Shown: positions 34,373-51,334 of the stretch, in pieces
How the letters are laid out: each line of letters begins with the position of its first letter
Numbering within the stretch: the stretch's first letter is position 1
Assembly (NCBI RefSeq): GCF_001886615.1
Contig: NZ_CP018139.1
Coordinates: 186,001-250,000, forward strand
Reading direction: 5' to 3'
Length of the DNA stretch: 64,000 nucleotides
Origin: Halomonas aestuarii
GTDB lineage: Bacteria > Pseudomonadota > Gammaproteobacteria > Pseudomonadales > Halomonadaceae
Program-made: the position numbers and the translations under genes
The notes under the pieces: model-generated
The model's database searches: none
What the model saw: only the letters and a program-made list of their open reading frames with translations
What the model was told of the DNA's origin: nothing

Positions 34373-34455
34373 CTCCACTCAGGCGGGGTTGTACGCTGAC
34401 GACCACCAACAGGATCAGGCCCATGGGTGACATGGGCCGGTTACGGAGACCATTC

Positions 34456-34896
34456 ATGAATCGTGCGACCACCTCCCTGCTGCTCTCCGGGGCTCTGCTG
34501 TTGGGCGCTGCCTCCGCCCAGGCCGCCCTCCCGGAGGAAGCGACCCTCTACAAGAATCCCCAGTGCGGCTGCTGCGACGGCTACGCCAGGCACCTCGAAG
34601 CGATGGGGATCGAGGTCACCGTCGTCGATGACGTCGAACTGGGCAAGGTCAAGGAGGCCTCAGGGGTGCCCTACGGCCTCGGCGCCTGCCATACGGTCGT
34701 GCTGGGGGAGTACGTGATCGAGGGACACGTGCCGCTTGCGGCGATCGAGGCCCTGTTCGAGCAACGCCCCGATATCGACGGCATCGGCCTCGCCGGCATG
34801 CCCATCGGCACGCCCGGCATGCCCGGCCCCCAGAGCGAGCCCTATGAGGTCTACCAGTTCGATGACCATCGGGACTCTCCTTTCATGACGCTCTGA
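34456..34896 (+). CDS. DUF411 periplasmic metal-binding protein
   Basis: A 146-residue protein with a signal peptide (about 1-23, ending SAQA). The DUF411 core follows: LYKNPQCGCCDGYARHLE near 30-47 with a CGCC metal-binding motif, SGVPYGLGACHTVVLGEYVIEGHVP near 75, and a tail rich in Met and Gly. DUF411 proteins bind copper and are often linked to copper-resistance genes. ATG 34456 has GGAG eight bases upstream. It begins 83 bases after the Met-rich repeat gene, so both are probably one transcript. The stop codon lies within a short tandem repeat. Confidence 0.9.
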   Translation: MNRATTSLLLSGALLLGAASAQAALPEEATLYKNPQCGCCDGYARHLEAMGIEVTVVDDVELGKVKEASGVPYGLGACHTVVLGEYVIEGHVPLAAIEALFEQRPDIDGIGLAGMPIGTPGMPGPQSEPYEVYQFDDHRDSPFMTL

Positions 34897-34944
34897 GCCT
34901 CTGAAACTCTGAGCCTCTGAAACTCTGAGCCTCTGAAACTCTGA
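34891..34944 (+). repeat. 16-bp tandem repeat spanning the DUF411 stop codon
   Basis: CTCTGAGCCTCTGAAA occurs three times in succession from 34891, followed by a partial fourth copy. The first unit contains the TGA stop of the DUF411 gene. Each unit also repeats CTCTGA, so further stops follow in several frames. Confidence 0.9.
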
Positions 34945-34971
34945 ACCACAGAAACTGACGCCCTTTACCTC

Positions 34972-35000
34972 AGCGCTCCCGGCCCCGAGCCGGGAGTGCT
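34972..35000 (+). terminator. Terminator of the copper-module transcript
   Basis: AGCGCTCCCGGC and GCCGGGAGTGCT form a 12-bp stem with one G-T pair around the loop CCCGA. It ends the DUF411 gene region, about 75 bases after its stop. Confidence 0.75.
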
Positions 35001-35131
35001 CATTTGTGGGCCCCACCATGCGGGTGTTGGCTGCCGATGACGCCCATCAGGGGGAAGATCATGACCGCACGCTGGTGGCGATGGGGGCTTGTTGGTATCG
35101 TCGGCGCGGCATTCATTCCCCTGGAGTCACC

Positions 35132-35479
35132 ATGTCACAGAAGATCTACTGCATCGCGAGCTTCAAGCCCAAGCCCGGCAAGGAGGCCGCCGTCTTCCAG
35201 GCGCTCCAGGCCCTGGAGCCGAATGCCCATCGCGAGGACGCCTGCCTGCGCTATACCGTCACCCGCCAGATCGACAACCCCTTCGCCCAGGGCGAGAGCT
35301 ACCCCATCGTCTTCCACGAGGTCTGGACCAACCGCTTGGCCTTCGAGGCGCACTGCCAGCGCCGGGAGATCCGTGACTTCTTCGCCCGCCAGGTCGAGGC
35401 CCCGGACGGCGACATCGAGGATGCCAACGTCTGCGTCTATACCGACGAACCGGCCGACTTCGACGCCCCGAGACTCTGA
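35132..35479 (+). CDS. ABM-domain (putative quinol monooxygenase) protein
   Basis: A 115-residue protein with the antibiotic-biosynthesis-monooxygenase dimeric fold: KIYCIASFKPKPGKEAAVF at the start, ACLRYTVTRQ, and FHEVWTNRLAFEAHCQ in the middle. ATG 35132 follows GGAG by six bases, which favours it over the longer frame from 35006. Relatives such as YgiN act on quinols or serve as small-molecule carriers. The substrate is unknown. Confidence 0.82.
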   Translation: MSQKIYCIASFKPKPGKEAAVFQALQALEPNAHREDACLRYTVTRQIDNPFAQGESYPIVFHEVWTNRLAFEAHCQRREIRDFFARQVEAPDGDIEDANVCVYTDEPADFDAPRL

Positions 35480-35524
35480 CCCCAGGAACGAGCGGGCACC
35501 CGGCCGGTGCCCCGCAACGCGATT

Positions 35525-35660
35525 CGCCGCCGGCCGCCTCGACCATGGCCTTGCGCCGACGCAGCGAGTCGATGGCGGTATCGGGGATCAGCAACGGCCG
35601 CGAGGCATCGGGATAGCGCTGGCGAAAGCGGCGGAACTCCGCCACTATTCGGCAGGCTCC
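35525..35660 (-). pseudogene. Decayed partial copy of the racemase-like gene at 37.2-38.0 kb
   Basis: On the minus strand this segment encodes FRRFRQRYPDASRPLLIPDTA and LRRRKAMVEAAGGE, nearly identical to the region near residues 180-215 of the intact gene at 37245-37973. The matching DNA runs about 120 bases and then stops abruptly on both sides. It lacks a start, a stop and the catalytic N-terminal half. It is a remnant of a tandem or dispersed duplication. Confidence 0.85.
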
Positions 35661-35814
35661 TGGCAACCTGGATGGGGGATGATGCCTCTCGGCACCTCCG
35701 CGGCGCCTCCGGGTCCGGCTTATGGGCCGGACGGCGCAGCCGGCGACCCTGGCCTGGCGCTTGCCCGTTCCTTCCTTTCCCGGGTCCTTCCCGGCCGCGG
35801 ATCGTGCTACCGGA

Positions 35815-37122
35815 CTAACCGTCCAGGCGTACTCGGCGAAGGCTGTATTCTCCCCCATAGTTCACCAGTACGAAGCCGCGGAATCCCTGGCGAAGGTGCA
35901 GATCACGTGCCTGGATGACGCGCCGGCCATCCACCCGCACTTCCATCCCGCCGTCCACGTTGCGACTCCAGTTCAGGGTATGGAAACGGCCGTCCTCGAG
36001 ATCGAGGGTGCCCTCGCTGCTGGCGATCACCTCGCCCCCTTCGGAGGTCAGCCGCACCAGGCTTAGCCCCGGGCGTGCCCCAGGGTTGTAGACCAGCCGA
36101 TATCCCCCGCCTGGCTGGCTGCCCTGAAACACCCCCAACTCCAGGCTGCCGGGTCGCTGGTAGGACGCCAGTTCCATCTCCAGTGCAAAGTCATTGCCGA
36201 CCGGCGCCTCGACGAAGATCCGGGCGGGCTCTGCAAATTCGACCTCCGGTACCGGTGTCGTCTCGGTGGCACGCGGGGGCAATCCACCCGCCTGCTCGAG
36301 GATCAGTTGCAGGACCGCAAGACCGAGCTCCTCCTCCCGCCGCCGCGGCTGTTCCGTCGGCGTTTCGGACCCGACCGCACGTGGCTTCTGCACGATACTG
36401 CGCAACCCGCGGTCATCGACATCGAAGCGACCACTGAGCACGGTCCATGCTGGATCACGTCGGAAGTCGCCATCGCGGAAGCTGTCCTCGAGCACGGCAC
36501 GCATCGCCTGCTCGGCGGAGGACGAGGGCGCAGGCGACGAGCTCTCATTCCGCAAGCGCTCAAGCAGCGTCGTCGTCACCAGGCCATCCTGTGGAAGCCC
36601 CACGGTGCCCTGGTAGTCGCGGATCGCATTACGGGTACGACTGCCGATCAGCCCATCGGCAGGACCGGCATCATAGCCCAGCTGGTTGAGTTCCCGCTGA
36701 ATACCGGCGACTCGCTCGCGGTCCGACAGCATCTCGACGGAGGTCGATGCCTCGGGAGATACAACCGAACCCGGCTGCCAGGCACGGGCCGCCTGCTGAG
36801 CATCGGCGATCTGCTGACGCGTCATCCTGGTGGCCACCGCATCGCGGGCAGCGGCAGCATGTCGGTGACCTCGGGATGCAGCAATGTTGTACCACTTGTG
36901 CGCCGCCACGAAATCCTGCGGCGTTCCATTGCCGGCCTCGTAAAGGCGCCCCAGCATGTACTGGGCATCCGCATCGCCGGCGACGGCAAGGCTGGAGAAG
37001 CCCCGCAGTGCCTGGCGGTACTCCTGCTCCTCGAAGCTATGCATGGCATCGTTGTAGTCGGCACTCGCCAGCGCGACATTACCGAGAAGCAGAAGGATGA
37101 ACAGCAATCTCTTATTGATCAT
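35815..37122 (-). CDS. SEL1-repeat / peptidoglycan-binding-like exported protein
   Basis: A 435-residue protein with a signal peptide (about 1-21). SEL1-type repeats follow (about 35-95; AQYMLGRLYEAGNGTPQDFVAAHKWY). Next comes a peptidoglycan-binding-like domain (about 140-190; IQRELNQLGYDAGPADGLIG, then RTRNAIRDYQ). A Pro/Ser/Arg linker leads to a C-terminal beta-sandwich (about 290-435) like a concanavalin/laminin-G fold that ends FRGFVLVNYGG. It is probably periplasmic and attached to the cell wall. The gene lies between the decayed and intact copies of the racemase-like gene. Its exact role is unknown. Confidence 0.82.
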   Translation of the reverse strand: MINKRLLFILLLLGNVALASADYNDAMHSFEEQEYRQALRGFSSLAVAGDADAQYMLGRLYEAGNGTPQDFVAAHKWYNIAASRGHRHAAAARDAVATRMTRQQIADAQQAARAWQPGSVVSPEASTSVEMLSDRERVAGIQRELNQLGYDAGPADGLIGSRTRNAIRDYQGTVGLPQDGLVTTTLLERLRNESSSPAPSSSAEQAMRAVLEDSFRDGDFRRDPAWTVLSGRFDVDDRGLRSIVQKPRAVGSETPTEQPRRREEELGLAVLQLILEQAGGLPPRATETTPVPEVEFAEPARIFVEAPVGNDFALEMELASYQRPGSLELGVFQGSQPGGGYRLVYNPGARPGLSLVRLTSEGGEVIASSEGTLDLEDGRFHTLNWSRNVDGGMEVRVDGRRVIQARDLHLRQGFRGFVLVNYGGEYSLRRVRLDG

Positions 37123-37244
37123 GGGCTCACTCCAGAGTGGGGGAGCATCTTCGACGCTCGGCTGAAGAGGACCACCGCCGGGCTATGCAGGAAATATAGT
37201 GCACCTGGTCAGGAAACATCGATGACAGGCTGAGCGACGCGACC

Positions 37245-37973
37245 TCAAGGCTCCGCGAGAAGCCCCAGCAAGGACGCAGGCCGTTGCGGCCACGTCAGCC
37301 GCTTCAGCCCGGCCCAGAGGGTCACCTGGTTGGCGGTCAGCACCTCGCCGCCTGCCGCCTCGACCATGGCCTCGCGCCGACGCAGCGAGTCGATGGCGGT
37401 ATCGGGGACCAGCAGCGGCCGCGAGAGATCGGGATAGCGCTGGCGAAAACGGCGAACCTCCCCGAGGATGTCGGCACGGTGGGAGTCCTCGGCATAGGGG
37501 CAGTCCAGCGCCTTGTCGTGGATGACGCCGACGCCGCCCTCGCGCAGGAAGCTCACGAGCCTCAGGGTGACATCGTCCGGATAGGGACTCAGCAGGTCGA
37601 CCCGGTCGAGTCCCAGGCTTTCGAGCGCCTCCAGGAAGGCCAGGGCAGTGCTGGTCACCGGCACGCCCAGTCGCGCCTCCAGGCCGGCACGCTGCTCTCG
37701 GGCCCAGTCGAGCCCGCCGATGAAGCTGGCGCTGGTGCAGGCCCATACCACGGCCTCGGCGCCCTCCTCCTCCACCAGCCGCCTGCCCATCGGCACCAGC
37801 CGCTCCACGTCACCCAGCGCCAGCAACGCCGCAGGGGCATGGTGGCCGTCACTCGGCACCTTGCCCACTTCCAGACGCGGCAACCCGGGCACCTCCTCGC
37901 CGAGGCTGTACCACTCGTAGTCATCCGGTCCATCGTCGGGCAGCAGGATGCCCAGGCAGGGTTCTTGCGACAT
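37245..37973 (-). CDS. Asp/Glu racemase or maleate isomerase superfamily protein with one catalytic cysteine
   Basis: A 242-residue protein from ATG 37973 (GGAGG seven bases upstream). The first catalytic cysteine of the superfamily is in VVWACTSASFIGG near residue 80. The second half has LLVPDTAIDSL where maleate isomerases and arylmalonate decarboxylases carry the second cysteine, so an Asp-Thr replaces it. LTANQVTLW near 220 is the usual end of the family. Arylmalonate-decarboxylase-like chemistry needs only one cysteine, so a decarboxylase, lyase or non-isomerase role is possible. The substrate is unknown. A truncated copy lies at 35.5 kb. Confidence 0.85.
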   Translation of the reverse strand: MSQEPCLGILLPDDGPDDYEWYSLGEEVPGLPRLEVGKVPSDGHHAPAALLALGDVERLVPMGRRLVEEEGAEAVVWACTSASFIGGLDWAREQRAGLEARLGVPVTSTALAFLEALESLGLDRVDLLSPYPDDVTLRLVSFLREGGVGVIHDKALDCPYAEDSHRADILGEVRRFRQRYPDLSRPLLVPDTAIDSLRRREAMVEAAGGEVLTANQVTLWAGLKRLTWPQRPASLLGLLAEP

Positions 37974-38087
37974 GCGATGACCTCCCGGTCTGGCTGAAGA
38001 CGTGGCACAACGGGTCAGGACCTGACCCAAGGCTAGCGCAGCTCCCCGGGCCGCTGGCAATTCCCCTTAAGGCTCAGGCGGTCAGGC

Positions 38088-38369
38088 TCACAGGAACTCG
38101 CGGGTGGCCTCCAGCACCCGGCCGTCCACCGTGCGCTGCAGTTTGTCCTCGATCTCGCTGCACAGGGATTCCACGGCTCGCGAGCTGGCGCCCACCACCA
38201 CGAAGGTCCACTCGCTGGCATCGTGGCGGTCAAGGTCGCCGCTCTCGCAGACGGCAATCGACGGATGGCGTCCGAAGCGCTCGTGAAGGCCGCCCATGCG
38301 CTGTCGCTTCTCCTTGAGCGAACGGCAGCCCGGCAGGGAGATCGTCATGGTGAGGATGGCGATGTGCAT
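38088..38369 (-). CDS. DUF503 family protein
   Basis: A 93-residue protein of the DUF503 family (related to YlxP). It starts MHIAILTMTISLPGCRSLKE and contains the ferredoxin-like alternating pattern. ATG 38369 has AGGAG seven bases upstream. YlxP-type proteins are often encoded next to infB and rbfA in Gram-positives; no such genes are here. The function is unknown. It is a single gene converging toward the racemase-like gene. Confidence 0.85.
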   Translation of the reverse strand: MHIAILTMTISLPGCRSLKEKRQRMGGLHERFGRHPSIAVCESGDLDRHDASEWTFVVVGASSRAVESLCSEIEDKLQRTVDGRVLEATREFL

Positions 38370-38538
38370 GCCCGTCTCCTGTCGGCGATATCGATCACGC
38401 CCACTATCGGCGCCTGGCGGCGAAGGCTGCAAGCCCGGGACGCCCTCGCAGCCGGGGGTGATGGCATGGCATCGCGCCGCCCGCGCAAGGTAAGCTCATG
38501 GCCGACACTCGACCAATTCCCCGAGGAGGCAAGGGCCC

Positions 38539-38928
38539 ATGCACACTCCCCCCCTCGCCGTGCGCCGCACGCCGCTGGTCGCCGTCTACGGCACCTTGAA
38601 GCGTGGCCTGCGCAACCACCACTGGCTGGAGGACGCCGCCTTCCTGGGCGAGGACTGCCTGACCAGCGCCACGCTCTATGACCTGGGGCCCTATCCCGCC
38701 GCCAGGCCCGAGCCTTCGCTGGGCATCGAGGTGGAGGTGTTCCAGGTGGATGCCCGCCTGCTGGCCGGCCTCGACCGGCTGGAGGACTACCGGGTCCGCA
38801 CGCCGCGGGAGGGCGACTACGACCGCCTCATCCATGCGACCCGCTTCGGCCCCGCCTGGCTCTACCTCTACAACCGGCGAGTGGCCGGTTTCCCGGTGAT
38901 CCGCGAGGGGGCCTGGCTGCCCCGCTAG
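38539..38928 (+). CDS. Gamma-glutamylcyclotransferase-fold protein
   Basis: A 129-residue protein of the GGCT-like (AIG2/BtrG) fold. The signature VYGTLKRGLRNHHWL (about 15-29) is the substrate-binding loop, and the catalytic acid is in LDRLEDYRV near 80. Such proteins cyclise gamma-glutamyl amines to release 5-oxoproline, although bacterial members such as YtfP have uncertain substrates. It has its own ribosome-binding site (GAGGAGG) upstream. It is probably cytosolic. Confidence 0.87.
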   Translation: MHTPPLAVRRTPLVAVYGTLKRGLRNHHWLEDAAFLGEDCLTSATLYDLGPYPAARPEPSLGIEVEVFQVDARLLAGLDRLEDYRVRTPREGDYDRLIHATRFGPAWLYLYNRRVAGFPVIREGAWLPR

Positions 38929-38996
38929 GGCCGCGCCTGTGATATAACACGCGCTCATCGAGGAAGCCCGTTCGGGATATCACCAAGGAGACGGTC

Positions 38997-39320
38997 ATGG
39001 TCCGCTTCATTCTCTATCTCACCCTGCTGGCCGGTCTGGCCTTTGGCGGGGTCTACTTCTACTACGACGTCAGCATCAAGCGCGCCGTGAAGGACCACCT
39101 CGACGGCCTCGGCCTCACCGCGGTGGAGGTGAAGCGGGTCGATTTCGACCCCATGGCGCCGCTGGTCACCGATACCCACGTCACCGCCGAGGTCACCTAC
39201 GGCGGCGCCGAGGCGAGCCTCGACATCCGCGTGATCGGCCATCCGGCCTTCTCCGAGGAGTATCGCCTCGAGCTCGACAGCCTGCAGGCCTTCCGGCTCA
39301 GCATCGGGACGGGTGGCTGA
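38997..39320 (+). CDS. Small single-TM protein of unknown function
   Basis: A 107-residue protein with one N-terminal membrane helix (about 3-25) and a predicted periplasmic beta-rich domain (about 35-105) that contains LTAVEVKRVDFDP and TDTHVTAEVTYGG. An AAGGAGA ribosome-binding site precedes ATG 38997. It resembles conserved small proteins of unknown function found in Halomonas. It lies 68 bases after the GGCT-like gene on the same strand. Confidence 0.72.
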   Translation: MVRFILYLTLLAGLAFGGVYFYYDVSIKRAVKDHLDGLGLTAVEVKRVDFDPMAPLVTDTHVTAEVTYGGAEASLDIRVIGHPAFSEEYRLELDSLQAFRLSIGTGG

Positions 39321-39587
39321 ACCCGGGCCGGCAGGCGGCCCCTGCTCGGCCTCGGTGCAACGGCCATCGACAGCTATCGTCCAAGTGAAGCGGTCCCGAC
39401 ATTCCGGACGGTCGTGCAGGGATGCAGTATTCTGATCGTATCCACCGTCGGGCTTCCGTCTGCCGCGTGCCGGTGGCCAATACCCATCGGCATGTCGGCG
39501 TACACCTGATTGTCCGGGCGCGACAGAACGACGCCGTTGACCGGAAAGCATGCGCCATACGCATCGCGACAATGACGGGACGCCACC

Positions 39588-40979
39588 TTGAACGCCACCG
39601 ACGTTGCCACCCGGATGTCTGCTGCGAGCACTGCGGCCTTGCTGATCGCGTCAGCGCAGGCGCCGCTGGGTTCGACGCTGATTGCCGTGGCACTCCCGTC
39701 AATCGGCATCGGGATCGGTGCGGATCTCGTCCTGATCACGGGTCTGCTGGTCACCAGTTATCTGGTGGTCAATGTGGTCTGCCAGGGACCTGCGGGAAAG
39801 ATAAGCGATCTCGTCGGGCATTCGCGCATCCTGTGGACGGGGATGGGTCTTTACGTCATCGGCGCGGGCTCAGGGCTCCTGGCACAGGATGTCGGCCTGT
39901 TGTTCGTGTCGCGCTGCGCCATGGCGGCAGCCGGTGCACTGGTGGTTCCCGCCACACTCGCCCTGATGCGCCTGCATGTGCCCAGGCAGCGGCGTGGCCG
40001 TATCTTTGGCCTGTTTGGGGCGACCATGGGCATTGCCGCAGCAGGTGGGCCCGCCCTGGGGGGTGAGATCGTGAGCCTGTTTGGCTGGCGCGCTGTTTTC
40101 ATTGCCAATTTGCCATTCCTGGCTCTCTCGGCCCTCCTGCTGCACCTGTATCCCTTGCCTGCAGGCCACCCCCAGGCACGGCGTTCCCTGAGGGAACTGG
40201 CCCAGTCGCTGGATGGTTTTGGCATCGGCCTGCTGGCGCTGTCACTGGCGTTCCTGATCGTGGCGAGCAAGCTCGATGGCCCGGGTTTTTTCGCCATGGT
40301 TCTGGCGGGGGCCGTCGCCGGGGTGGCCTTTGTCACCTGGGAGGCAAAGGCCGCGGCCCCCGTCTTCGATCCGCATCTGTTTTCTCGGCCGGCCTTTGCC
40401 GCGGGAACGATGATGATCGCCTTGCAGAACTTTGCGATGTACGGATTGCTGTACCAGTTGCCGCAATTCTTTTCCGTGTTCCGCGGGGCCGAGCCACGCG
40501 ACATCGGCTACATGCTTTTCGTCATGATGATCGGCATGGTGGTTGCCGCACCGGCAGGTGGACACCTGACCGACCGGATCAGCGCACGGAGTGCGGCGCT
40601 CTTGGGGTGTGCGCTGCTGCTGACGGGCATGGTACAGCTCTGGCACCTGGGGTCGTTCGAGTCCCCGAAGGACGCGATGCTGGCCCTGCTGATCTTCGGG
40701 CTGGGCCTTGGCCTGTGCAACGCACCTGCACAGGCATCCTTGATGAGCGCAGTGGAATCGGGACAGGCGGGAATGGCCGCCGGGGTCAGTTCCACGATGC
40801 GCTACCTCGGCGGAATCCTTAGCATTCTGGTGCTCGGCGCGGTCCTGGGAGCCGACACGATCGTCAGCGTAACGCGCCATGAGGTCATGATCTGGCTGTT
40901 TACCATCGCCATCGTGCTGTCCGCCCTCATGAGCCAGAGACTGCTGGGCGCGGGGAATGCGGCAGCGGAATCCCCCTGA
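39588..40979 (+). CDS. MFS transporter, EmrB/QacA type
   Basis: A 463-residue major-facilitator transporter with 14 hydrophobic segments. The start is probably TTG 39588; ATG 39615 would remove nine residues. DHA2-family features are ALPSIGIGIGADLVLI near 35, GKISDLVGHSRIL in the loop after helix 2, and GPALGGEIVSLFGWRAVFIAN in helices 5 and 6. Members export drugs or small organic compounds with proton exchange. It begins a segment with lower GC and is followed, about 160 bases later on the same strand, by the two phosphotransferase genes, which suggests a joint modify-and-export or uptake function. Confidence 0.88.
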   Translation: MNATDVATRMSAASTAALLIASAQAPLGSTLIAVALPSIGIGIGADLVLITGLLVTSYLVVNVVCQGPAGKISDLVGHSRILWTGMGLYVIGAGSGLLAQDVGLLFVSRCAMAAAGALVVPATLALMRLHVPRQRRGRIFGLFGATMGIAAAGGPALGGEIVSLFGWRAVFIANLPFLALSALLLHLYPLPAGHPQARRSLRELAQSLDGFGIGLLALSLAFLIVASKLDGPGFFAMVLAGAVAGVAFVTWEAKAAAPVFDPHLFSRPAFAAGTMMIALQNFAMYGLLYQLPQFFSVFRGAEPRDIGYMLFVMMIGMVVAAPAGGHLTDRISARSAALLGCALLLTGMVQLWHLGSFESPKDAMLALLIFGLGLGLCNAPAQASLMSAVESGQAGMAAGVSSTMRYLGGILSILVLGAVLGADTIVSVTRHEVMIWLFTIAIVLSALMSQRLLGAGNAAAESP

Positions 40980-41137
40980 CATCGCTACCCTTCGGCTACC
41001 TTACGCCGGCGCCTCTGGCAGTGACCGACATGCGTGGCTGACCTGACCCTTCGAGAGAGCAGATAAAGCAGCCATGTCGGTGATGTGAAGTCTGCTAGCA
41101 TCAATCTAGTGCCCGACACTCCCCTCGATCTGCATTC

Positions 41138-42802
41138 ATGGCAGGACATCACAACATGAACAGTCCAACTTCCTCCGCCCCGGCCGCGTTTGAAGCACCC
41201 GGACCGGGATCGTGGTCCATTGACGCGGCGCATTTCCCGCGCCCGGTGTCGCATTTTCAGGCCGAGATCCATCCACCAGGCATAACCAGCGGGTTTCTGG
41301 ACTGCGCGCGCCGCTATGGGTTGCTGATCGATACCCTGGACTTTCGCTTCGTGAACGGTTTCGCCTATTCGTCCCCCGTACCCGCGGCCGAGGCGGAAAT
41401 TCCGGCGCGTTTCAGGGCCGCCGAGGATGTGTTCCGTAACAAGATCTGGAGGGAGGACCTCGCGCGCTGGGACCGCGACGTGAAACCCGCGTCCGTCAAG
41501 GCGCATCAGGCGTTGCTGGCCGTAGATCCCGCCACATTGTCCGACGACGAACTGATGACCTATGTCGAGCGTTGCCGCGACAACCTGCAACGCATGATTC
41601 ATCAACATCACAGCTTCAATCTGGCGGCGATTCTTCCGGTGGGTGATTTCATGGCCCATGTCGGCGCATGGACAAGCCTGCCGATGGGCGAGTTTCTCGC
41701 ACTGACGCGTGGATCTGCTCCGGAATCCGCCGGATCCTTTCCGGAGATGGATCGACTGGCCGAGGAAATACGAAACAACCCGGATGCACGCGAACTCCTG
41801 GAATCCGGGCAGGCGAGTGCAGATATCCTCGAACTGCTCTGTAATGAGCTGAATTCGCTGGGTGAAGCGACGAGAGACTATCTTGGCGTGGTCGGCGACC
41901 GACTGCTCAACAGCCTTGATACCGGCGAGCCCAGGGCCATCGAGGTGCCCGACGCGCTCATCGCCCGGATCAGGATGGCCGTCGAGCAGCATGAGCATCA
42001 GGACGTGGCCGTGACCGAAGCGGACGTGTCCAGGCTGCGAGAGAAGATTCCCTCCGAACACCGCGCCCAGTTCGATGAGTTGCTCGACGAGGTGCGTCTG
42101 ATGTCGCGGCTTCGTGACGAGCGTGGCTTCTACAGCGACGTCTGGGCGGGGGGTGTCATGCGCCGCGCACTGCTTGCCGCCGGCGCGAGGCTTGCCGCGG
42201 AGAGCCGGATCGAAGCGGCGGCACATCTCGTCGAGGCAAGCTATGAGGAAATCCAGGCCCTTCTCAGCCGAACGGGTGGCCCTGGCGCGGTGGAACTCGC
42301 GGAACGCGCCAGGTATCGCAAGGAGCAGCGTGCCGAGAATGCGCCTGCGGAACTTGGCGATCCCGCCTCTCCGCCACCCCCCATGGACGGCCTGCCACCA
42401 CAGGTGATACGTGTGATGACCGCCCTGGGGACGGCCATTCAATCCCTCGGGGCGGGGCCTCAAGACAATCGCGACAGTGCCGTCGTCAAGGGAATCGGGG
42501 CCAGCCCCGGCACCTACAGCGGAATCGCGCGTGTCATCGACAGTATTGAAGACCTCAGTCGCCTCGAACAGGGGGATGTGCTGATCACGGCGGCGACCAC
42601 AGACTCCTTCAACATCGTCCTTCCCCTGCTGGGGGCCATCGTCACGAATGCCGGCGGCCTGCTGTCCCATGCCGCCATCGTGGGACGCGAATATGGCATC
42701 CCCTCCGTCGTGGGAACCCGCAACGCCACCGCTCAGATCGCGGACGGAACGCCTGTGACGGTGGACGGAACGACAGGCGAAGTCCGGATCGACGCCCCAT
42801 GA
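41138..42802 (+). CDS. PEP-utilising (His-domain) subunit of a split phosphotransferase
   Basis: A 554-residue protein; ATG 41156 is an alternative start. It begins with a helical region (about 20-390) resembling the substrate-binding part of rifampin phosphotransferase (WSIDAAHFPRPVSHF near 27). It ends with the phosphohistidine swivelling domain (about 450-554) with GLLSHAAIVGREYGIP; His511 is the expected phosphate carrier. The ATP-grasp half is missing here and is encoded by the next gene, whose ATG overlaps this stop (ATGA). Rifampin phosphotransferase is one chain in the order ATP-grasp, substrate domain, His domain; phenylphosphate synthase has two chains split this way. The substrate is unknown. 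Confidence 0.85.
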   Translation: MAGHHNMNSPTSSAPAAFEAPGPGSWSIDAAHFPRPVSHFQAEIHPPGITSGFLDCARRYGLLIDTLDFRFVNGFAYSSPVPAAEAEIPARFRAAEDVFRNKIWREDLARWDRDVKPASVKAHQALLAVDPATLSDDELMTYVERCRDNLQRMIHQHHSFNLAAILPVGDFMAHVGAWTSLPMGEFLALTRGSAPESAGSFPEMDRLAEEIRNNPDARELLESGQASADILELLCNELNSLGEATRDYLGVVGDRLLNSLDTGEPRAIEVPDALIARIRMAVEQHEHQDVAVTEADVSRLREKIPSEHRAQFDELLDEVRLMSRLRDERGFYSDVWAGGVMRRALLAAGARLAAESRIEAAAHLVEASYEEIQALLSRTGGPGAVELAERARYRKEQRAENAPAELGDPASPPPPMDGLPPQVIRVMTALGTAIQSLGAGPQDNRDSAVVKGIGASPGTYSGIARVIDSIEDLSRLEQGDVLITAATTDSFNIVLPLLGAIVTNAGGLLSHAAIVGREYGIPSVVGTRNATAQIADGTPVTVDGTTGEVRIDAP

Positions 42803-43620
42803 CACCGATTCCATTGTCGTCGGCCCGCAATGAGCAGGCCTACGGCGGAAAGGCCACGCAACTCGGTGCGGCGATCCGCGCCGGGCTGCCTGTGCCCGAA
42901 GGTTGCGCGCTCGATACCGCGTTCGTCGATGCGATCGCATCGGGTGACCCCGGCGCACGGGAGGAACTTGCTGGAATATGTGCGCAGATGCCCGGTCCGG
43001 TGGCCGTCAGATCCTCAGCCATCGGCGAGGACTCGGGTGGTGCGAGTTTCGCCGGACAGCATGCTACCGTTCTCAACGTCATGGGTTTCGAGGCTGTGTC
43101 GGACGCGGTTCTGGTCGTCCGGAAATCGGCATGGACGGAGTCTGCCCGGGCGTATCGCGACCGTATCGGGGTGGACACGGACATACGCATGGGCGTGGTC
43201 ATTCAGCGACTTGTCGCCGCGGAGGTGGCCGGCGTGCTGTTCACCTGCAACCCCGTGACCGGACAAGACGAGCTTGTCGTCGAGGCCGTGTGGGGGCTGG
43301 GTGAAGCGGTTGTGCAGGGTCTTGTCATCCCCGATAGCTATCGCATGGATCGTGCCGGGTGCCTCATTGAATGCCGCGCAGGCTTCAAGGACATCCGTAT
43401 TCAGCGTATGCCCGGAGGCCTGACCCGCAAGGAGGCTGTCGCGGAGCATCTTGTCGAGCATCCCTGCCTGGATGCGGAAAAACTGGCTGCGCTGCACGTT
43501 CTTGTGTCGCGGTGCGAGAGCGTGTTCGGTACTGGACCACATGACATCGAATGGGCGTTCGAGCGCGAGATTCCTTACCTGCTGCAATTACGCCCGGTGA
43601 CGAAATACTCGACGGCCTGA
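42799..43620 (+). CDS. PEP/pyruvate-binding ATP-grasp subunit of the split phosphotransferase
   Basis: A 273-residue stand-alone ATP-grasp domain like the N-terminus of PEP synthase and PPDK. The nucleotide-binding motifs are YGGKATQLG (about 15), VAVRSSAIGED (about 69), VIQRLVAAEVAGVLFT (about 134) and LLQLRPVT at the end. It should form a pyrophosphoryl or phosphoryl enzyme from ATP and pass phosphate to the His domain of the partner. ATGA overlap with the upstream gene indicates equal expression. No CBS-domain third subunit, as in phenylphosphate synthase, is adjacent. Confidence 0.87.
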   Translation: MTPIPLSSARNEQAYGGKATQLGAAIRAGLPVPEGCALDTAFVDAIASGDPGAREELAGICAQMPGPVAVRSSAIGEDSGGASFAGQHATVLNVMGFEAVSDAVLVVRKSAWTESARAYRDRIGVDTDIRMGVVIQRLVAAEVAGVLFTCNPVTGQDELVVEAVWGLGEAVVQGLVIPDSYRMDRAGCLIECRAGFKDIRIQRMPGGLTRKEAVAEHLVEHPCLDAEKLAALHVLVSRCESVFGTGPHDIEWAFEREIPYLLQLRPVTKYSTA

Positions 43621-43693
43621 ACCGCCATCCAGGCGGAGCGGCAAGCACAAAGAATGGACGGGGCAAGATTCTCCGTCGCCACGTCACCCTCAC

Positions 43694-45013
43694 TCAGGAC
43701 GAAGGCAGACAGCCGGTGGGGCCAGCGCCAGCGGCCAGCACGCGCAGGCGAACCTCGAGATCATGGCGCCGGTAGTCGGTATCGAAGGCCATCACCTCGA
43801 CGACGGTATCATCGCGCCGGCCGACCAGTATCGGCGCCGAGTGGTAAACGAAACGCTCGCCATCCACCGTCATCTGCAGGCGTGGCAGGCCCTCCTCGTC
43901 GTACTCCAGCCGCAGCGAATCGAAGCGCCATGTCAGCGGAGTGTCGTCGGCACAGCTCGCCAGATCCAGCGCAACGCCCGGTGTCAGCTCGAAGCGCTGC
44001 CGCTCCAGTACCCTGCCCTCCGCATCGGTCACCACCAGCCGGTAGGCACGTGGCCCCGCATAGGGCGCGCCCTCCCCGGGCAGGGTCGCCAGCAGCGCGG
44101 CGCGGACGGGCTCAACCGGAAACAGCGGCGGCTGATACGGCAGCGTGTTGCCAGGGCCGGGACGATAGACGAAGCGCAACGAGAGCAGCCGTTCACTGCT
44201 GACATCGAGGCCCGGCACGCTGCCGGACATCGACAGCACCTCTCGCGGCTCCCAGGCCAGCTTGGCGTAGCGCCCCTGGGGGGTACGCAGGAAGAGCGTG
44301 CCGGGAGTGTCGTCAAGCGTCAGCCTCGCCGCCGAGAGTGGCGCGGGCGAGGCATCCAGGTAGCGAAGCAGGTAGCCCCGGCTGGGGGTGGCGATGCCCT
44401 GGGCCTCGGCCGGCACGAAGTGAAGCCCTCCCCCTTCGGCGACCACCAGGGTGACCTCGAAGGGCTCACGCCGTAATTCGAGGGGGTAGAGATCGACTCG
44501 CGCGAGGTCATGATTCGGGCCATGGTCAATGAACGACCAGCCGAAGGGCTCGCCCGCCTCGTCCCAGCCCAGATAGGCGGTGCCGCCGGGCAGATGCGCA
44601 TCACGGATGGCCACCGTTTGCAGGAACAGGTCTGCCCCCGGTGCCGCATGGCCCATGTCCAGGGTCTGATAGCCCACCGCCTCGGCCTTGAGCCGGCCAC
44701 CGCCCGTGCCCACCAGCCACACCGGCCCCGGCAAGGGCACCCGAAAGCGGCCCTCGTCGTCGGTGGTCGACGTGGCCACATAACTTTTATCCCAGATCAA
44801 CTGGCCATCATGGTCGCTTCGCCCCCAGCCATAGCGGCGCAATGTCACAGTGGCACCAGCCACCGGCGCATCGCTGCCATACTCGACAAGCTGGCCCGAT
44901 ACCGGTGCCGGCGACAGCCACCACGGCGCCAGCCATGTCAGCATCAGGAAGGCGGCCAGGCCCATGGCAAGGGCCACGGCAAGGCGGCGAAACGCTCGGG
45001 AACGGCCGCTCAT
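43694..45013 (-). CDS. Membrane-anchored protein with carboxypeptidase-regulatory-like domain
   Basis: A 439-residue protein with one N-terminal membrane helix (about 10-30) and a periplasmic part. The first domain (about 38-130) looks like a carboxypeptidase-regulatory or CNA-B Ig fold (GQLVEYGSDAPVAGATVTLR, then DDEGRFRVPLPG). The remaining 300 residues are beta-rich and unrecognised. Its ATG overlaps the end of the upstream gene by four bases, so the two proteins are translationally coupled and probably act together. A pilus, adhesin or cell-envelope role is possible but not shown. Confidence 0.7.
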   Translation of the reverse strand: MSGRSRAFRRLAVALAMGLAAFLMLTWLAPWWLSPAPVSGQLVEYGSDAPVAGATVTLRRYGWGRSDHDGQLIWDKSYVATSTTDDEGRFRVPLPGPVWLVGTGGGRLKAEAVGYQTLDMGHAAPGADLFLQTVAIRDAHLPGGTAYLGWDEAGEPFGWSFIDHGPNHDLARVDLYPLELRREPFEVTLVVAEGGGLHFVPAEAQGIATPSRGYLLRYLDASPAPLSAARLTLDDTPGTLFLRTPQGRYAKLAWEPREVLSMSGSVPGLDVSSERLLSLRFVYRPGPGNTLPYQPPLFPVEPVRAALLATLPGEGAPYAGPRAYRLVVTDAEGRVLERQRFELTPGVALDLASCADDTPLTWRFDSLRLEYDEEGLPRLQMTVDGERFVYHSAPILVGRRDDTVVEVMAFDTDYRRHDLEVRLRVLAAGAGPTGCLPSS

Positions 45014-45402
45014 GGCGCGTCAGGCCTCGGCCACCCGCCGAGGAACCGGGCGGCGTCGAAGGCGATGCGCCGATGTCTCGATACCAGCACGATGTTCCTC
45101 GGGCCCAGTCGCGTGTGAAGGTCCGCCTCCAGCAGCGTCTCGCCGCGGAAGGTGACGGCCAACCTTTCGCCCAGGTGGGAAGAGAGCAGGCCTTGGAAGG
45201 CCCCAAAACATTGGGGTGTTTCGGGCATATCGAAACGCAGGTGCATCAGGTCATTCTCGGCGAGGGCATGGCCTACCCGTTGGGCACAGACCGGGGTCAA
45301 CACGAAGCGCTCGGCGCCCATGGTGAAGACCACGCCCTCATCATCGGCGTGAACCAGGGGCACCGCCAGCGCCAGCACAGCAAACAGCGACAGATGGAAC
45401 AT
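45010..45402 (-). CDS. Small exported protein, SecD-P1-like domain
   Basis: About 130 residues from ATG 45402 (GAGG upstream); an in-frame start at 45435 is less likely. A signal peptide (about 1-19) ends PLVHA. The mature part has FQGLLSSHLGERLAVTFRGETLLEA, which recalls the head region of the SecDF P1 domain, where similar strands bind substrate. It is first in a coupled pair with the regulatory-domain protein (four-base overlap). Its function is unknown, and the SecD resemblance is short. Confidence 0.62.
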   Translation of the reverse strand: MFHLSLFAVLALAVPLVHADDEGVVFTMGAERFVLTPVCAQRVGHALAENDLMHLRFDMPETPQCFGAFQGLLSSHLGERLAVTFRGETLLEADLHTRLGPRNIVLVSRHRRIAFDAARFLGGWPRPDAP

Positions 45403-45435
45403 CACTCCCTCGCGTCTCAAGAATGCATGCAGCAT

Positions 45436-45625
45436 AGCAACATGGCGCTGCCATCAAGACCATGGAGAACCATGGCTCAAGATTACCCTGCCATTTGCTG
45501 TACTATATTTTGTAAACATCATCATTCTTCAACAACGTCTTTGGTAAAATAGCGGCTTTTTAAGCGTAGCGCGGAAATGGTGGCGGTTTACCCAAACCCG
45601 GAAATGTTAATCTTTCAATCGCCTT
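45436..45625. other. AT-rich intergenic boundary of the cassette cluster
   Basis: About 190 bases noticeably richer in A/T than the chromosome to the left. No attC site with the R-box complement expected for the esterase cassette (GTTGGGC) is present. The cluster border is therefore unclear on this side. Confidence 0.5.
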
Positions 45626-46255
45626 TCATGGAAGAGCCCCGCTATTCTCCAGCAAGTCATTAATTGACTCCGCCATCTCTTGATATCCCGCTTCATTAAA
45701 GTGAATCTGGTCAGATTTCAGGGATGGATCACGGAGCAAATCAACAATCAGAGATCCGTCATACACCAAATCGAAATCCTCGGCGAGCTCCTCATAAAAT
45801 GGCGCAGAACTGGAAAACAAGCTCTTCTTAGGAACACCGATCAGCACTACCGGGATACCTCGACTTTGCGACATCTCGATCATCACCCTCAGATTCTGCT
45901 TGATTACAGAATGACTTATATTTCGAAGAATATCATTACCGCCTTCAATCAGAATCACCAAATCCGGGGAAGAACGCTCAAGCTCAACTGGCAATCGTTC
46001 CAGACCTCTATCGGTTTTTTCACCGGAAACACCGGCATTGATCACGTTCAACCCCGTGAGATCGGCGAGCACTGCAGGATAACTTCTTGATCTTGTCGTA
46101 CCAACCCCGTCAGTCAGGCTATCGCCGAAGGCCAGAATCGTCCCACCCTTTGCGATAGGGTCAAGTTTTGGTTCGTTACAACCGTTAAATAAAATTGTGA
46201 AAACAAGAACTGAGAGGATCTTAATATTTTTATTTAAACGATACATTATACTCAC
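45626..46255 (-). CDS. SGNH-hydrolase lipoprotein (arylesterase/lysophospholipase type), cassette gene
   Basis: About 209 residues with a lipoprotein signal peptide ending FNGC (about residues 22-26). The SGNH blocks are complete: GDSLTDGVG (block I), the glycine in SGEKT (II), GGNDILR (III) and DQIHFNE (V with Asp and His). It resembles TesA-type arylesterases but is anchored as a lipoprotein, so it acts in the periplasm or outer membrane. The gene is distinctly AT-rich. It starts just after an attC site, consistent with an integron cassette. Alternative ATG codons within four residues are possible. Confidence 0.85.
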   Translation of the reverse strand: MSIMYRLNKNIKILSVLVFTILFNGCNEPKLDPIAKGGTILAFGDSLTDGVGTTRSRSYPAVLADLTGLNVINAGVSGEKTDRGLERLPVELERSSPDLVILIEGGNDILRNISHSVIKQNLRVMIEMSQSRGIPVVLIGVPKKSLFSSSAPFYEELAEDFDLVYDGSLIVDLLRDPSLKSDQIHFNEAGYQEMAESINDLLENSGALP

Positions 46256-46265
46256 TCTTGGTTAC

Positions 46266-46321
46266 GCCCAACGCCGCGCTCTGCGGAAAATTTGTCCGAC
46301 AGCCGCGGCTTGTTATGTGGC
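46266..46321 (-). repeat. attC recombination site (end of the FAD-oxidoreductase cassette)
   Basis: The outer boxes are GCCCAAC (46266-46272) and GTTATGTGGC (46312-46321). On the minus strand this reads GCCACATAAC ... GTTGGGC, with a perfect GTTRRRY core site. The inner part pairs imperfectly (GCCGCG with CCGCGGC, CGGA with TCCG). Its GCCACATAAC box is the exact complement of the first ten bases of the same cassette at 48137-48146, as expected for a real gene cassette. Confidence 0.8.
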
Positions 46322-46465
46322 ATTACTGCTTTGTTCATAACTTACCGATCGTCATTAGCTCCACCGGATCGGTTGGAAACACAGCCGCCCGCCCGAGATA
46401 GATGCTGTCTCTGAGTACTTAGGCGGGATCTCGTGCCGAGCGGCAAGATGGGATTAACATGCCTT

Positions 46466-48019
46466 CTATCTCAGTTTCTGGAAGACACGCGGATCGATCG
46501 CCGCAGCGCCTAACATGCCACCCGTAAGCGCCCCAGCGATTCCAGGGCTCATAACGTCCTGCCCTGACAGGAACAAACCGGGAACAGGCGTGCGGGCATT
46601 GAGTGCATCCGATAACAACCGGCGCGGGCTTGTTTCGACGCCATAGAACCCCCCCTTCTCGTGACCGGTGAATGAGGCGGTTGCGAGTGGAGTGCCAAGC
46701 TCACGGTAGACGACAAGTGGCGCCAAATCTGGGAATTTCTCTTCGAAGCACGCCAACATCCTGGATTCGATACTCTGCTTAAATACTGCCCACTCTTCGG
46801 GACGCTGCTCAGCACCTCCATTTGCAAATTCGGCTACTGACGACCAATCGGCCCACACCAGCATATCGCCAGTGTGCCTGTTCGAGGGGCCGGGTTCGTG
46901 CGTGGCATCCTTGAGGGATCCAAACGAGACGAACATCATCGGAATTGGCTCGTTGCCCGGCGCTGCAAAGATGGCGTCATTGGTGTCCCAGCTGTCGTAA
47001 AACCAGTGGTTTGAACGCGTCGCTCCGTGTTTGGCGATGTCTCCCTCGAAGCCAAGAAAAAGATCGAAGTGGCAGATCGACGGCTTGAATGTAGCTATCT
47101 CACGAGCCCAGTCCTGCTCACGAATTTTCTCCGGTAGCAGGTGCTTCACGGTTTCACCGGCACCGATCGCGGATACGATGAACGGCGCGTTGAATTCTTC
47201 ACCGGATTTGGTGCGCACACCCACGGCTTTGTCATCTTCAAGCAATATTTCACTAACCGACATTCCGGTTCGGGCACTGCCTCCCGCTGCTTCGATCACC
47301 GGAACAAGACCCTTCGCGATGGCAGCAGCGCCGCCCACGGGATAGCCGGCGCCTTCAAGGTAGTGGCCCATGACGGTGGCATGAAAGGCAAAGCTCGCTT
47401 CTTTCGGATTGCCGCCATAGGTGCCCCACTGCGCCGACAACACGGAGGCAAGCTTCGGGTTGCTGATGAGCTCTGCAATCACCTCGGCGGTCGTGCGACT
47501 GCACCAGCGCTGGATCTTCCTTTTATTCCACCAGTGATGAGCGGAACGGAACGGCTCAGGTATCGCTCGCTCGGCACCCACCATGTGCCCGGCTTCCTCC
47601 GCCGACAGCAATGCCTGGAAGTAGGCATCTATTTCGGCAACATTATCGGGAAAATGGTCTTTAAGCTCCATCTTGTAGGCTTCAGCCGGGCGCCCAACGG
47701 ATATCTCGAAGCCATCCGGGAAGTGAAGCGTGTCATAGACGGTACCAACCGAGCGAAACTCGATTGTTCCGCCGCTGAGCCAGTCCAAGATCCGGCCCGC
47801 AGGTTGGTCATGGCCGAATGTACCGCAATAATGAAGGCCGACATCCCAGGTGAAGCCGTTTCGTGAGAAGGAATGTGTAAGCCCACCAAATGCCTGCGCT
47901 TGCTCAAGCAGCAGGACTTTGTGATCTAGCCGGGAAAGCGCAGCGGCCGTCGTCATTCCACCCATGCCGGACCCGATAACAATGACGTCGAACTCGTTTG
48001 CTGACTGTTTGGCTGTCAT
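46466..48019 (-). CDS. Phytoene-desaturase-like FAD-dependent oxidoreductase, cassette gene
   Basis: A 517-residue flavoprotein of the CrtI/CrtISO/retinol-saturase superfamily. The FAD dinucleotide fold is at the N-terminus (VIVIGSGMGGMTTAAAL, about residues 11-27), and GLTHSFSRNGFTWDVGLHYCG (about 45-64) is the usual second FAD region. The C-terminal FAD motif is GLFLSGQDVMSPGIAGAL near 490. Members saturate or isomerise polyene lipids; the substrate here is unknown. No other carotenoid genes are adjacent. It is the body of an integron cassette bounded by matching attC elements. Confidence 0.87.
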   Translation of the reverse strand: MTAKQSANEFDVIVIGSGMGGMTTAAALSRLDHKVLLLEQAQAFGGLTHSFSRNGFTWDVGLHYCGTFGHDQPAGRILDWLSGGTIEFRSVGTVYDTLHFPDGFEISVGRPAEAYKMELKDHFPDNVAEIDAYFQALLSAEEAGHMVGAERAIPEPFRSAHHWWNKRKIQRWCSRTTAEVIAELISNPKLASVLSAQWGTYGGNPKEASFAFHATVMGHYLEGAGYPVGGAAAIAKGLVPVIEAAGGSARTGMSVSEILLEDDKAVGVRTKSGEEFNAPFIVSAIGAGETVKHLLPEKIREQDWAREIATFKPSICHFDLFLGFEGDIAKHGATRSNHWFYDSWDTNDAIFAAPGNEPIPMMFVSFGSLKDATHEPGPSNRHTGDMLVWADWSSVAEFANGGAEQRPEEWAVFKQSIESRMLACFEEKFPDLAPLVVYRELGTPLATASFTGHEKGGFYGVETSPRRLLSDALNARTPVPGLFLSGQDVMSPGIAGALTGGMLGAAAIDPRVFQKLR

Positions 48020-48136
48020 TCGGCTGCGCTCCTCTTATTCTTGATATATATCAAAAATACCTGGAACCGATCGCTTTGGGCCAAAAAAAGACATTTTCAC
48101 TTCATCTCCGAACCCAAAGCGCGCACATGCCACCTA

Positions 48137-48193
48137 GCCACATAACGCTCTCCGTCACCGGTGTCAAAGCCGCAGCGAAGCGGAGGTTTTAGC
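48137..48193 (-). repeat. attC recombination site (end of the cupin cassette, start of the FAD cassette)
   Basis: The outer boxes are GCCACATAAC (48137-48146) and GTTTTAGC (48186-48193). The inner arms CTCCG and CGGAG pair. At 57 bases it has the usual size. The R box on the cupin side is less conserved than the other, so this site may be partly decayed. Confidence 0.65.
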
Positions 48194-48221
48194 ATCCGGT
48201 GCATGGCCTGGTCATGTGTGT

Positions 48222-48551
48222 TTAGTCGACAACGAATAGCTTGGCGCCTCGCTCAGTCGATGAACGGTGAAGCTCTGCATTATCTGCGACCTGATAGCTC
48301 ATACCGCGACTGAGTACGAAACGCCGACCGTCTTCCAGTTCAGTATGAAGCTCGCCTTCTAGACAGAGAAGTATGTGTCCCTTGGCACACCAATGATCGG
48401 CCAAATAGCCTGGGCTGTACTCAACCATTCGCACTCGGATATCGCCGAATTTTCGGGTTTTCCAGTAAGCCACACCCTGTTCCCCGGAGTGCTCGGTCTT
48501 CTCAACTTCAGACCAATCAGTAACCCCAAAAGGCAAATCCGTGATGTTCAA
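48222..48551 (-). CDS. DHCW-motif cupin protein, cassette gene
   Basis: A 109-residue single-domain cupin. The start is TTG 48551, with AAGGAG about ten bases upstream. The metal-site region ADHWCAKGHILLCLEGEL (about 51-68) has the histidine and glutamate of the cupin motif and resembles the DHCW-motif cupin family, here with Trp-Cys order changed. The second motif is near YQVADNAELHRSS. The family is small and functionally unassigned. It lies between two attC-like sites, consistent with a cassette. Confidence 0.8.
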   Translation of the reverse strand: MNITDLPFGVTDWSEVEKTEHSGEQGVAYWKTRKFGDIRVRMVEYSPGYLADHWCAKGHILLCLEGELHTELEDGRRFVLSRGMSYQVADNAELHRSSTERGAKLFVVD

Positions 48552-48567
48552 GACTGCTACTCCTTAA

Positions 48568-50069: not shown

Positions 50070-50089
50070 GGACATCCCCGCCGTCAGGA

Positions 50090-50401: not shown

Positions 50402-51332
<931 letters not shown>

Positions 51333-51334
51333 AC

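What the first reader, a model, noticed from the sequence alone, without database searches (positions are those of the whole stretch)
39588..43620. Split and permuted rifampin-phosphotransferase-like pair behind an MFS exporter
Seen: two overlapping genes encode a substrate/His-domain protein (554 aa, phosphocarrier His511) and a separate ATP-grasp protein (273 aa). Known: rifampin phosphotransferase is a single chain ordered ATP-grasp, substrate domain, His domain; phenylphosphate synthase of Thauera is split into two such chains. Here the gene order is permuted and the summed length is close to the single-chain enzyme. With an MFS gene upstream and lower GC, this may be a mobile resistance or catabolic unit acting on an unknown hydroxyl compound. 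The substrate and the role of the transporter are inference.
Basis: partly seen in the sequence, partly recalled or inferred. Interest (0 to 1): 0.72.

Follow-up and report, generated by a model that had tools for sequence, protein, structure and literature searches.

The report
Two-part small-molecule kinase with exporter
Three neighbouring genes encode a two-protein enzyme that probably uses ATP to put a phosphate on some hydroxyl compound, plus a membrane exporter; the split enzyme type is already known, but this compact, exporter-linked branch that moves between bacteria has no known target.

Summary
The two genes are real. HIS (41138 or 41156 to 42802) carries the substrate domain and the swivelling phospho-histidine domain (His511). 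ATPG (42799-43620) is a complete ATP-grasp chain with the ATP-contact residues kept. The pair is conserved: they adjoin in 17 of 17 family loci that could be examined. The split is not new. Two-component small-molecule dikinases (PpsAB, CreHI, HpeHI) are published, and PpsAB and HpeHI have this gene order. HIS aligns over its whole length with those proteins but shares only 22-23% identity with them. It forms a separate clade (100/100 support) with a compact ATP-grasp chain (about 40-45 residues shorter) and its own swivel motif. It fails the tests for rifampin phosphotransferase. The MFS exporter is a genuine third member: 8 of 9 proteobacterial loci carry it, before or after the pair. The unit is an insertion: two same-genus genomes show the empty site, and four Marinobacter genomes hold it at unrelated places. 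Best reading: a mobile phosphorylate-and-export protection unit for an unidentified hydroxylated, perhaps aromatic, compound. A catabolic role remains possible. In relatives the ATP-grasp chain is followed by, or once fused to, a cyclic-nucleotide-binding domain.

The parts
39588..40979 (+). MFS transporter, DHA2 / EmrB-QacA-like exporter family (463 aa), third member of the unit
   Evidence: PF07690 E 1.2e-44; best NCBIfam match TIGR00711, below its cut-off; beside HIS-ATPG in 8 of 9 proteobacterial loci
41156..42802 (+). HIS: substrate-binding domain plus C-terminal swivel phospho-histidine domain (548 aa; alternative start at 41138 gives 554 aa)
42668..42670 (+). codon of the phosphocarrier histidine, His511 (554-aa numbering)
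   Evidence: invariant in 73 aligned relatives; aligned with RPH His825
42113..42118 (+). codons of Arg326-Asp327, equivalent to the catalytic Arg666-Glu667 of RPH
   Evidence: alignments; both invariant in 73 relatives
42799..43620 (+). ATPG: compact ATP-grasp subunit (273 aa)
42799..42802 (+). ATGA overlap of the HIS stop and the ATPG start
   Evidence: read directly; the same 4-base overlap with ATG or GTG in 15 of 16 same-strand loci
39321..43714 (+). acquired stretch shared with Halomonas denitrificans (L001) and absent from the same site in L061 and L062; ends approximate
   Evidence: blastn of window 34000-52000 against loci

Best explanation
HIS and ATPG are the two subunits of a small-molecule dikinase. 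ATPG binds ATP. His511 of the HIS swivel domain takes the beta-phosphate and AMP and Pi leave. The swivel domain then moves some 40-50 A to the substrate domain of HIS, and the phosphate passes to a hydroxyl of a small, probably aromatic or polyketide-like compound held near Arg326-Asp327. The exporter encoded beside it pumps out the compound or its phosphate. Together they are a mobile phosphorylate-and-export unit that protects the cell. Shown by computation: domains, fold, kept catalytic residues, conserved pairing, conserved exporter, insertion. Inferred from RPH, PpsAB and HpeHI: the reaction. Inferred from context only: the protective role and the direction of transport. Unknown: the substrate.
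For: Domains and models. Residues whose loss abolishes RPH activity are kept: K22, R117 and T136 as K18, R71 and T90, His825 as His511, Arg666 as Arg326, with Asp327 for Glu667 (RPH mutants from PMC4844700, passages). Whole-length profile match to two-component dikinases. Pair adjoining in 17 of 17 loci. Exporter in 8 of 9 proteobacterial loci and in two arrangements; 20 contig lengths shared by the exporter and HIS lists against 0.49 expected. Unit travels without other shared genes: empty sites and unrelated flanks. A TetR-type gene stands just before the pair in a Streptomyces plasmid.
Against: The characterised two-component relatives (HpeHI, CreHI, PpsAB) start catabolic routes. L086 has an FAA-hydrolase gene and an ADP-forming acyl-CoA-synthetase-like gene beside HIS-ATPG-MFS, L030 has an FAA-hydrolase-like gene next to HIS and L003 an enoyl-CoA-hydratase gene about 1.4 kb upstream of HIS. 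The direction of transport is untested, and the TIGR00711 exporter cut-off is not reached (149 of 230.2 bits). None of the 10 Streptomyces and G456-phylum loci has the exporter; L085, a gammaproteobacterium, lacks it too. No substrate is known.
Confidence: 0.5

Rival explanations
1. Catabolic or scavenging unit: the MFS protein imports a phenolic or other hydroxylated compound, and the two-component kinase traps it as a phosphate at the start of a degradation route encoded elsewhere, as HpeHI, CreHI and PpsAB do.
For: All three characterised two-component relatives work this way (PMC12167813, Discussion). HIS shares their N-terminal motifs and matches them over its whole length. FAA-hydrolase genes near the unit in L086 and L030, an acyl-CoA-synthetase-like gene in L086, and a PdxA-like gene near a distant homologue in L087.
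Against: No catabolic gene is shared between loci; the flanks of the four Marinobacter loci differ. At L001 the inserted stretch holds just the three genes. HIS lies outside the phenolic clade (22-23% identity; separate clades). The MFS falls nearest to drug-exporter families.
Confidence: 0.25
2. Modification and secretion: the kinase phosphorylates a compound made by the cell (a signal, siderophore or antibiotic precursor) and the exporter releases it.
For: Kinase plus exporter is compatible with tailoring and release. An O-methyltransferase gene lies just before the pair in L029.
Against: No biosynthetic genes are shared between loci. A self-contained three-gene unit in unrelated sites does not suit a precursor made by host-specific genes.
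Confidence: 0.12
3. A split rifampin phosphotransferase that inactivates rifamycins.
Against: 23% identity to the RPH chains compared against the >42% of the rifampin-active clade A (PMC4844700, passages). NF041857 scores 95.6 (HIS) and 163.4 (ATPG) bits against a cut-off of 999. The profile match to two RPH chains starts only at residue 122 of 548, so the N-terminal part of the pocket is unlike.
Confidence: 0.03

Closest known systems
HpeHI, CreHI and PpsAB two-component small-molecule dikinases
   Same: Two separate chains (substrate plus swivel His; ATP-grasp), adjacent genes, whole-length profile match of HIS, shared N-terminal motifs, same gene order as PpsAB and HpeHI
   Different: 22-23% identity against 44-46% among the three; ATP-grasp chain 40-45 residues shorter; F-N instead of P-x-W in the swivel domain; Arg-Asp instead of Val-Glu at the catalytic pair; exporter instead of catabolic partners
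Rifampin phosphotransferase (RPH)
   Same: All three domains are reproduced by the two chains; catalytic His, Arg and ATP contacts kept
   Different: Two chains in the order substrate-His, then ATP-grasp; 23% identity; not above NF041857; N-terminal pocket region unlike
PEP synthase and pyruvate phosphate dikinase
   Same: ATP-grasp and swivel domains
   Different: No PEP/pyruvate barrel PF02896 in either chain
PRK08296-type families of NCBIfam (hypothetical proteins)
   Same: Best NCBIfam matches of HIS (up to 128 bits)
   Different: Far below their cut-offs (578-730 bits); four of the five match mainly the C-terminal half, NF006149 matches residues 91-550
mph(A)-mrx-mphR macrolide resistance operon
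   Same: An antibiotic kinase gene next to an MFS gene and, in one relative here, a TetR-type gene
   Different: Unrelated kinase fold; no macrolide link tested

Membership tests
Two-component small-molecule dikinases (PpsAB/CreHI/HpeHI type) | Separate ATP-grasp subunit with kept ATP contacts | tested here: met
   PF01326; K18, R71, T90, E251 kept
Two-component small-molecule dikinases (PpsAB/CreHI/HpeHI type) | Partner chain of substrate domain plus C-terminal swivel domain with GGxxxH | tested here: met
   PF00391, GGLLSH; whole-length profile match; fold
Two-component small-molecule dikinases (PpsAB/CreHI/HpeHI type) | The two genes adjoin across genomes | tested here: met
   17 of 17 loci examined; divergent in one, L078
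Two-component small-molecule dikinases (PpsAB/CreHI/HpeHI type) | ATP to AMP plus Pi with phosphorylation of a small molecule | not testable with these tools
   needs purified proteins
Phenolic-kinase clade within them (PpsA, CreH, HpeH) | Membership of the clade whose members share about 45% identity | tested here: not met
   22-23% identity; separate clades with 100/100 support each
Phenolic-kinase clade within them (PpsA, CreH, HpeH) | Catabolic partner genes beside the kinase | tested here: not met
   none beside it in the window or in L001; L086 and L030 have possible ones
Phenylphosphate synthase (PpsABC) | Third CBS-domain subunit and phenylphosphate carboxylase genes | tested here: not met
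   present in L032, not among the window neighbours scanned
Rifampin phosphotransferase | Single chain above the NF041857 cut-off | tested here: not met
   two chains; 95.6 and 163.4 bits against 999
Rifampin phosphotransferase | RIF-binding plus swivel fold | tested here: met
Rifampin phosphotransferase | Catalytic Arg666-Glu667 and His825 | tested here: inconclusive
   Arg and His kept, Glu replaced by Asp
Rifampin phosphotransferase | Phosphorylates rifampin | not testable with these tools
   needs an assay
PEP synthase / PPDK | PEP/pyruvate-binding barrel (PF02896) | tested here: not met
   no match up to E 1 in HIS or ATPG
DHA2 drug exporters | TIGR00711 above curated cut-off | tested here: not met
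   149 bits against 230.2; still the best NCBIfam match, over residues 15-414

The most novel reading that the evidence does not exclude
This is a third, unnamed branch of small-molecule dikinases with a compact ATP-grasp subunit that is coupled, depending on lineage, either to a dedicated exporter (phosphorylate and export) or to a cyclic-nucleotide sensor. In the order around G869 the pair is followed by a cNMP-binding protein in 5 of 5 loci with room, with a nucleotide-cyclase/AAA protein nearby; in a gammaproteobacterium (L085) the cNMP domain is fused to the ATP-grasp chain itself, so that chemical protection would be gated by a second messenger. The exporter form moves as a three-gene unit, possibly through a circular intermediate.
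Probability: 0.2. Interest if true: 0.62.

Novelty: new variant of a known kind. Interest (0 to 1): 0.42.

Why it matters
The authors who characterised HpeHI call these kinases a relatively unexplored group. A mobile branch with a conserved exporter partner and no shared degradation genes is a concrete candidate for an uncharacterised chemical-protection mechanism in marine and soil bacteria. The cNMP-linked relatives make control of such a kinase by a second messenger directly testable.

Tried and rejected
Rejected: (a) the split or the gene order as novel. (b) RPH proper. (c) PEP synthase: no PF02896; the genome's only other match to HIS, at C1:35295-35588, lies in an 837-aa open frame and is presumably an ordinary PEP synthase, not checked further. 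(d) An anti-phage system: no PADLOC match at E 0.01 for the three proteins. (e) A multi-copy attachment element at the Marinobacter flank: the 171-base flank piece of L003 was found in 2 of 7 genomes searched, only at the unit's own flanks. (f) Repeats at the window ends: no direct repeat of 14 nt or more within 38900-39600 or within 43500-43800; the two ends were not compared with each other. (g) Rfam: no match at gathering score in L001, L003, L030, L031.

Weak points: the HIS tree has long branches (L010, L034), so its join of the window clade with RPH (92/94) is not to be trusted. In the ATPG tree the window group is again one clade (100/100), but the phenolic chains are not, and RPH falls among them. 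The contig-length coincidence test is indirect, since the contigs are not identified and only the 120 best rows of each list were used. The simple motif patterns miss some rows: the His pattern matches 114 of 120 HIS relatives, RDERG 119, the ATPG patterns 115-118 of 120; misses were not inspected. HpeH has no solved structure, so its absence from the fold lists says nothing. A paper search for PF27448, the second Pfam domain precomputed for most HIS relatives, found none, and I could not learn what it is. A paper search for a cNMP-linked dikinase listed only PMC12167813, which has no occurrence of 'cyclic nucleotide-binding'; earlier paper searches are (search listings only).
Full report
WHAT IS THERE. 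Three plus-strand genes: an MFS transporter of DHA2 type (39588-40979), HIS (41138 or, more likely, 41156 to 42802) and ATPG (42799-43620), the last two overlapping by ATGA. HIS has the PEP-utiliser mobile (swivel phospho-histidine) domain at its C-terminus and ATPG the PPDK_N ATP-grasp domain; there is no PEP/pyruvate barrel. Aligned with rifampin phosphotransferase of Listeria (RPH), ATPG keeps K22, R117, T136 and E297 as K18, R71, T90 and E251; all four are invariant or nearly invariant in 59 relatives. In RPH the first three are needed for the drug to be phosphorylated, while E297 is not (PMC4844700, passages). So the first refutation condition, lost ATP-binding residues, is not met. HIS keeps RPH Arg666 as Arg326 and has Asp327 for Glu667; substitution of either to Ala abolishes transfer to the drug in RPH.

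THE SPLIT IS KNOWN. PMC12167813 (abstract, Results on structure and on mutation, Discussion read; [quoted passage not shown] On plasmid records I found a phenylphosphate synthase operon in the order PpsA, PpsB, CBS protein, carboxylase (L032), Cre-like clusters in the order ATP-grasp then His-protein (L035, L041) and an Hpe-like cluster in the order His-protein then ATP-grasp (L036). Calling these PpsAB, Cre-like and Hpe-like is mine, from gene content. hpeH and hpeI are the first two genes of their cluster (PMC9618137, passages). The window's order is therefore an ordinary one for two-component enzymes.

WHERE IT FALLS. A profile of 73 HIS relatives aligns with five PpsA/CreH/HpeH-type chains over 517 columns (E 3.4e-43). 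With RPH it aligns over 391 columns from residue 122 on (E 2.6e-26), though that RPH profile has only two sequences. Motifs in the N-terminal part (W..D..H and [VI]xG[FY].Y) resemble those of the phenolic kinases and are not seen in RPH. Yet identity is 22-23% to the PpsA-, CreH- and HpeH-type chains, which share 44-46% among themselves, and 23% to RPH. In the HIS tree the window group (13 rows) and the phenolic group (5 rows) are each one clade with 100/100 support; how they join RPH is unsure because of long branches. Two features mark the window group. First, a compact ATP-grasp chain: the 7 chains aligned lack about 40-45 N-lobe residues that the RPH, PpsB-, CreI- and HpeI-type and Thermomicrobium chains have, and 117 of 120 listed ATPG relatives are 265-290 aa long. 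Second, F-N in the swivel domain, where RPH and the phenolic kinases have P-x-W: the pattern T-[TS]-[EDST]-[SA]-F-N is in 120 of 120 listed HIS relatives, the window's own among them. The more distant L078, L085 and L086 keep F-N with some change before it, and L029 has Y-N. The 120 are the best of 1,691 relatives found. I file it as a new variant of the two-component dikinases, outside the characterised phenolic clade.

CO-OCCURRENCE. I examined 17 loci of the family where DNA beside HIS is held: the window, L001-L004, L030, L009, L026-L029, L076-L078, L080, L085, L086. ATPG adjoins HIS in 17 of 17. In 16 it follows on the same strand; 15 of these have the 4-base overlap with an ATG or GTG start, while in L086 the overlap codon is ATA and the start is unclear. 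In L078 the two genes are divergent. Left out because the contig ends in or just after HIS: L005/L019, L079, and the more distant L087 and L088 (30-31% identity). Independently, the HIS and ATPG lists share 26 contig lengths of at least 4,000 bases against 0.38 expected from shifted lists. The second refutation condition is not met.

THE EXPORTER BELONGS TO THE UNIT. The same MFS family stands beside the pair in 8 of 9 proteobacterial loci: before HIS in the window, L001 and L005; after ATPG in L002, L003, L004, L030 and, at 35% identity, L086. L085 lacks it. L087, not counted, has an MFS-like gene that the window MFS does not match at E 1e-6. None of the 10 Streptomyces and G456-phylum loci tested has it in the held stretch at E 1e-6. 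The MFS and HIS lists share 20 contig lengths against 0.49 expected, among them contigs labelled Alsobacter, Maribius and Aestuariicoccus.

IT IS AN INSERTION. In L061 and L062 (same genus) the genes left of the unit run straight on to a parvulin-like peptidyl-prolyl-isomerase gene (named by eye), with 54 and 161 bases between the matched stretches. L060 has about 3.6 kb there, mostly unlike the window. L001 (Halomonas denitrificans) has just the three genes at that site. The window has the three genes plus about 6 kb more (43715-49712). Four Marinobacter loci (three named records and one genome drawn from the same genus) share only a 4.0-4.2 kb block around the unit, plus one 131-base match between the left flank of L003 and the right flank of L030. 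The order in Marinobacter is a circular permutation of that in Halomonas: in L003 the match to window 41134-43620 is followed without a gap by the match to 39567-40935. That suggests, without proving, a circular intermediate; among the unit's genes none is a recombinase. The family is rare. Counting the window's own genome or the centre, it is in 1 of 58 relatives, 2 of 398 of the phylum, 4 of 369 of the class (one, G1498, by two partial distant copies), 1 of 295, 4 of 251, 4 of 120 and 7 of 50 in the other groups drawn; the draws overlap.

HOW IT MOST LIKELY WORKS. By homology ATPG presents ATP, His511 takes the beta-phosphate, AMP and Pi are released, and the swivel domain delivers the phosphate to a hydroxyl in the HIS pocket. 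For the biological role I favour protection by phosphorylation and export (0.5): two kinase genes and an exporter travel alone into unrelated sites, a TetR-type gene precedes the pair in Streptomyces, and I saw no catabolic gene shared between loci. Against this stand the catabolic roles of the characterised two-component relatives, the FAA-hydrolase genes near the unit in L086 and L030, the acyl-CoA-synthetase-like gene in L086 and the enoyl-CoA-hydratase gene in L003. A catabolic role keeps 0.25.

A LEAD IN THE RELATIVES. In the order around G869 a protein of about 1,200 aa (in L027: cyclase, AAA and zinc-ribbon domains) lies near HIS-ATPG in 7 of 7 loci (L026-L028, L076, L077, L079, L080), and a cNMP-binding protein follows ATPG in the 5 of these 7 that have room for it (domain shown by Pfam for L026). 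In L085, a gammaproteobacterium, ATPG is one 416-aa chain with PF01326 and PF00027; its tail is 63% identical over 131 residues to the separate cNMP protein of L076. A second messenger may thus control the kinase in that branch, much as a CBS protein accompanies PpsAB. The window has no such domain.

VERDICT. Observation confirmed, with a corrected start. Interpretation partly supported: right enzyme type and mobility, wrong on the novelty of the split and of the order. New variant of a known kind, interest 0.42.

Noticed in passing
L085 8894-10144 (genome G1457): ATP-grasp subunit fused to a cyclic-nucleotide-binding domain (PF01326 plus PF00027 in 416 aa), next to a HIS homologue.
   Followed up: partly
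L026-L028, L076, L077, L079, L080: HIS-ATPG near a 1,200-aa cyclase/AAA protein in 7 of 7 loci, and followed by a cNMP-binding protein in the 5 with room.
   Followed up: partly
window 39567-43620 against L003 7997-11852: MFS-HIS-ATPG in Halomonas and HIS-ATPG-MFS in Marinobacter are circular permutations with a gapless joint, which hints at a circular intermediate.
   Followed up: partly
window 43715-49712: About 6 kb of lower-GC DNA (58.4%) with a GDSL-lipase, a CrtI-like oxidoreductase and a cupin-like gene, at a site where L001 has only the three-gene unit.
   Followed up: partly
L087 2878-3861: A PdxA-like dehydrogenase gene and an enoyl-CoA-hydratase-like gene (the latter named by eye) lie near a distant HIS homologue, which would fit a catabolic route through phosphorylated hydroxy compounds.
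   Followed up: no
L088 2429-2905: A CBS-domain protein near a distant HIS homologue, recalling the CBS subunit of phenylphosphate synthase.
   Followed up: no
window 33545-34896: A Met/Gly-repeat secreted-looking protein (275 aa) followed by a small protein with a Cys-Gly-Cys-Cys motif; by eye a metal-handling pair.
   Followed up: no
L078 699-3293: HIS and ATPG are divergent here, the only one of 17 loci where they do not lie on the same strand.
   Followed up: no
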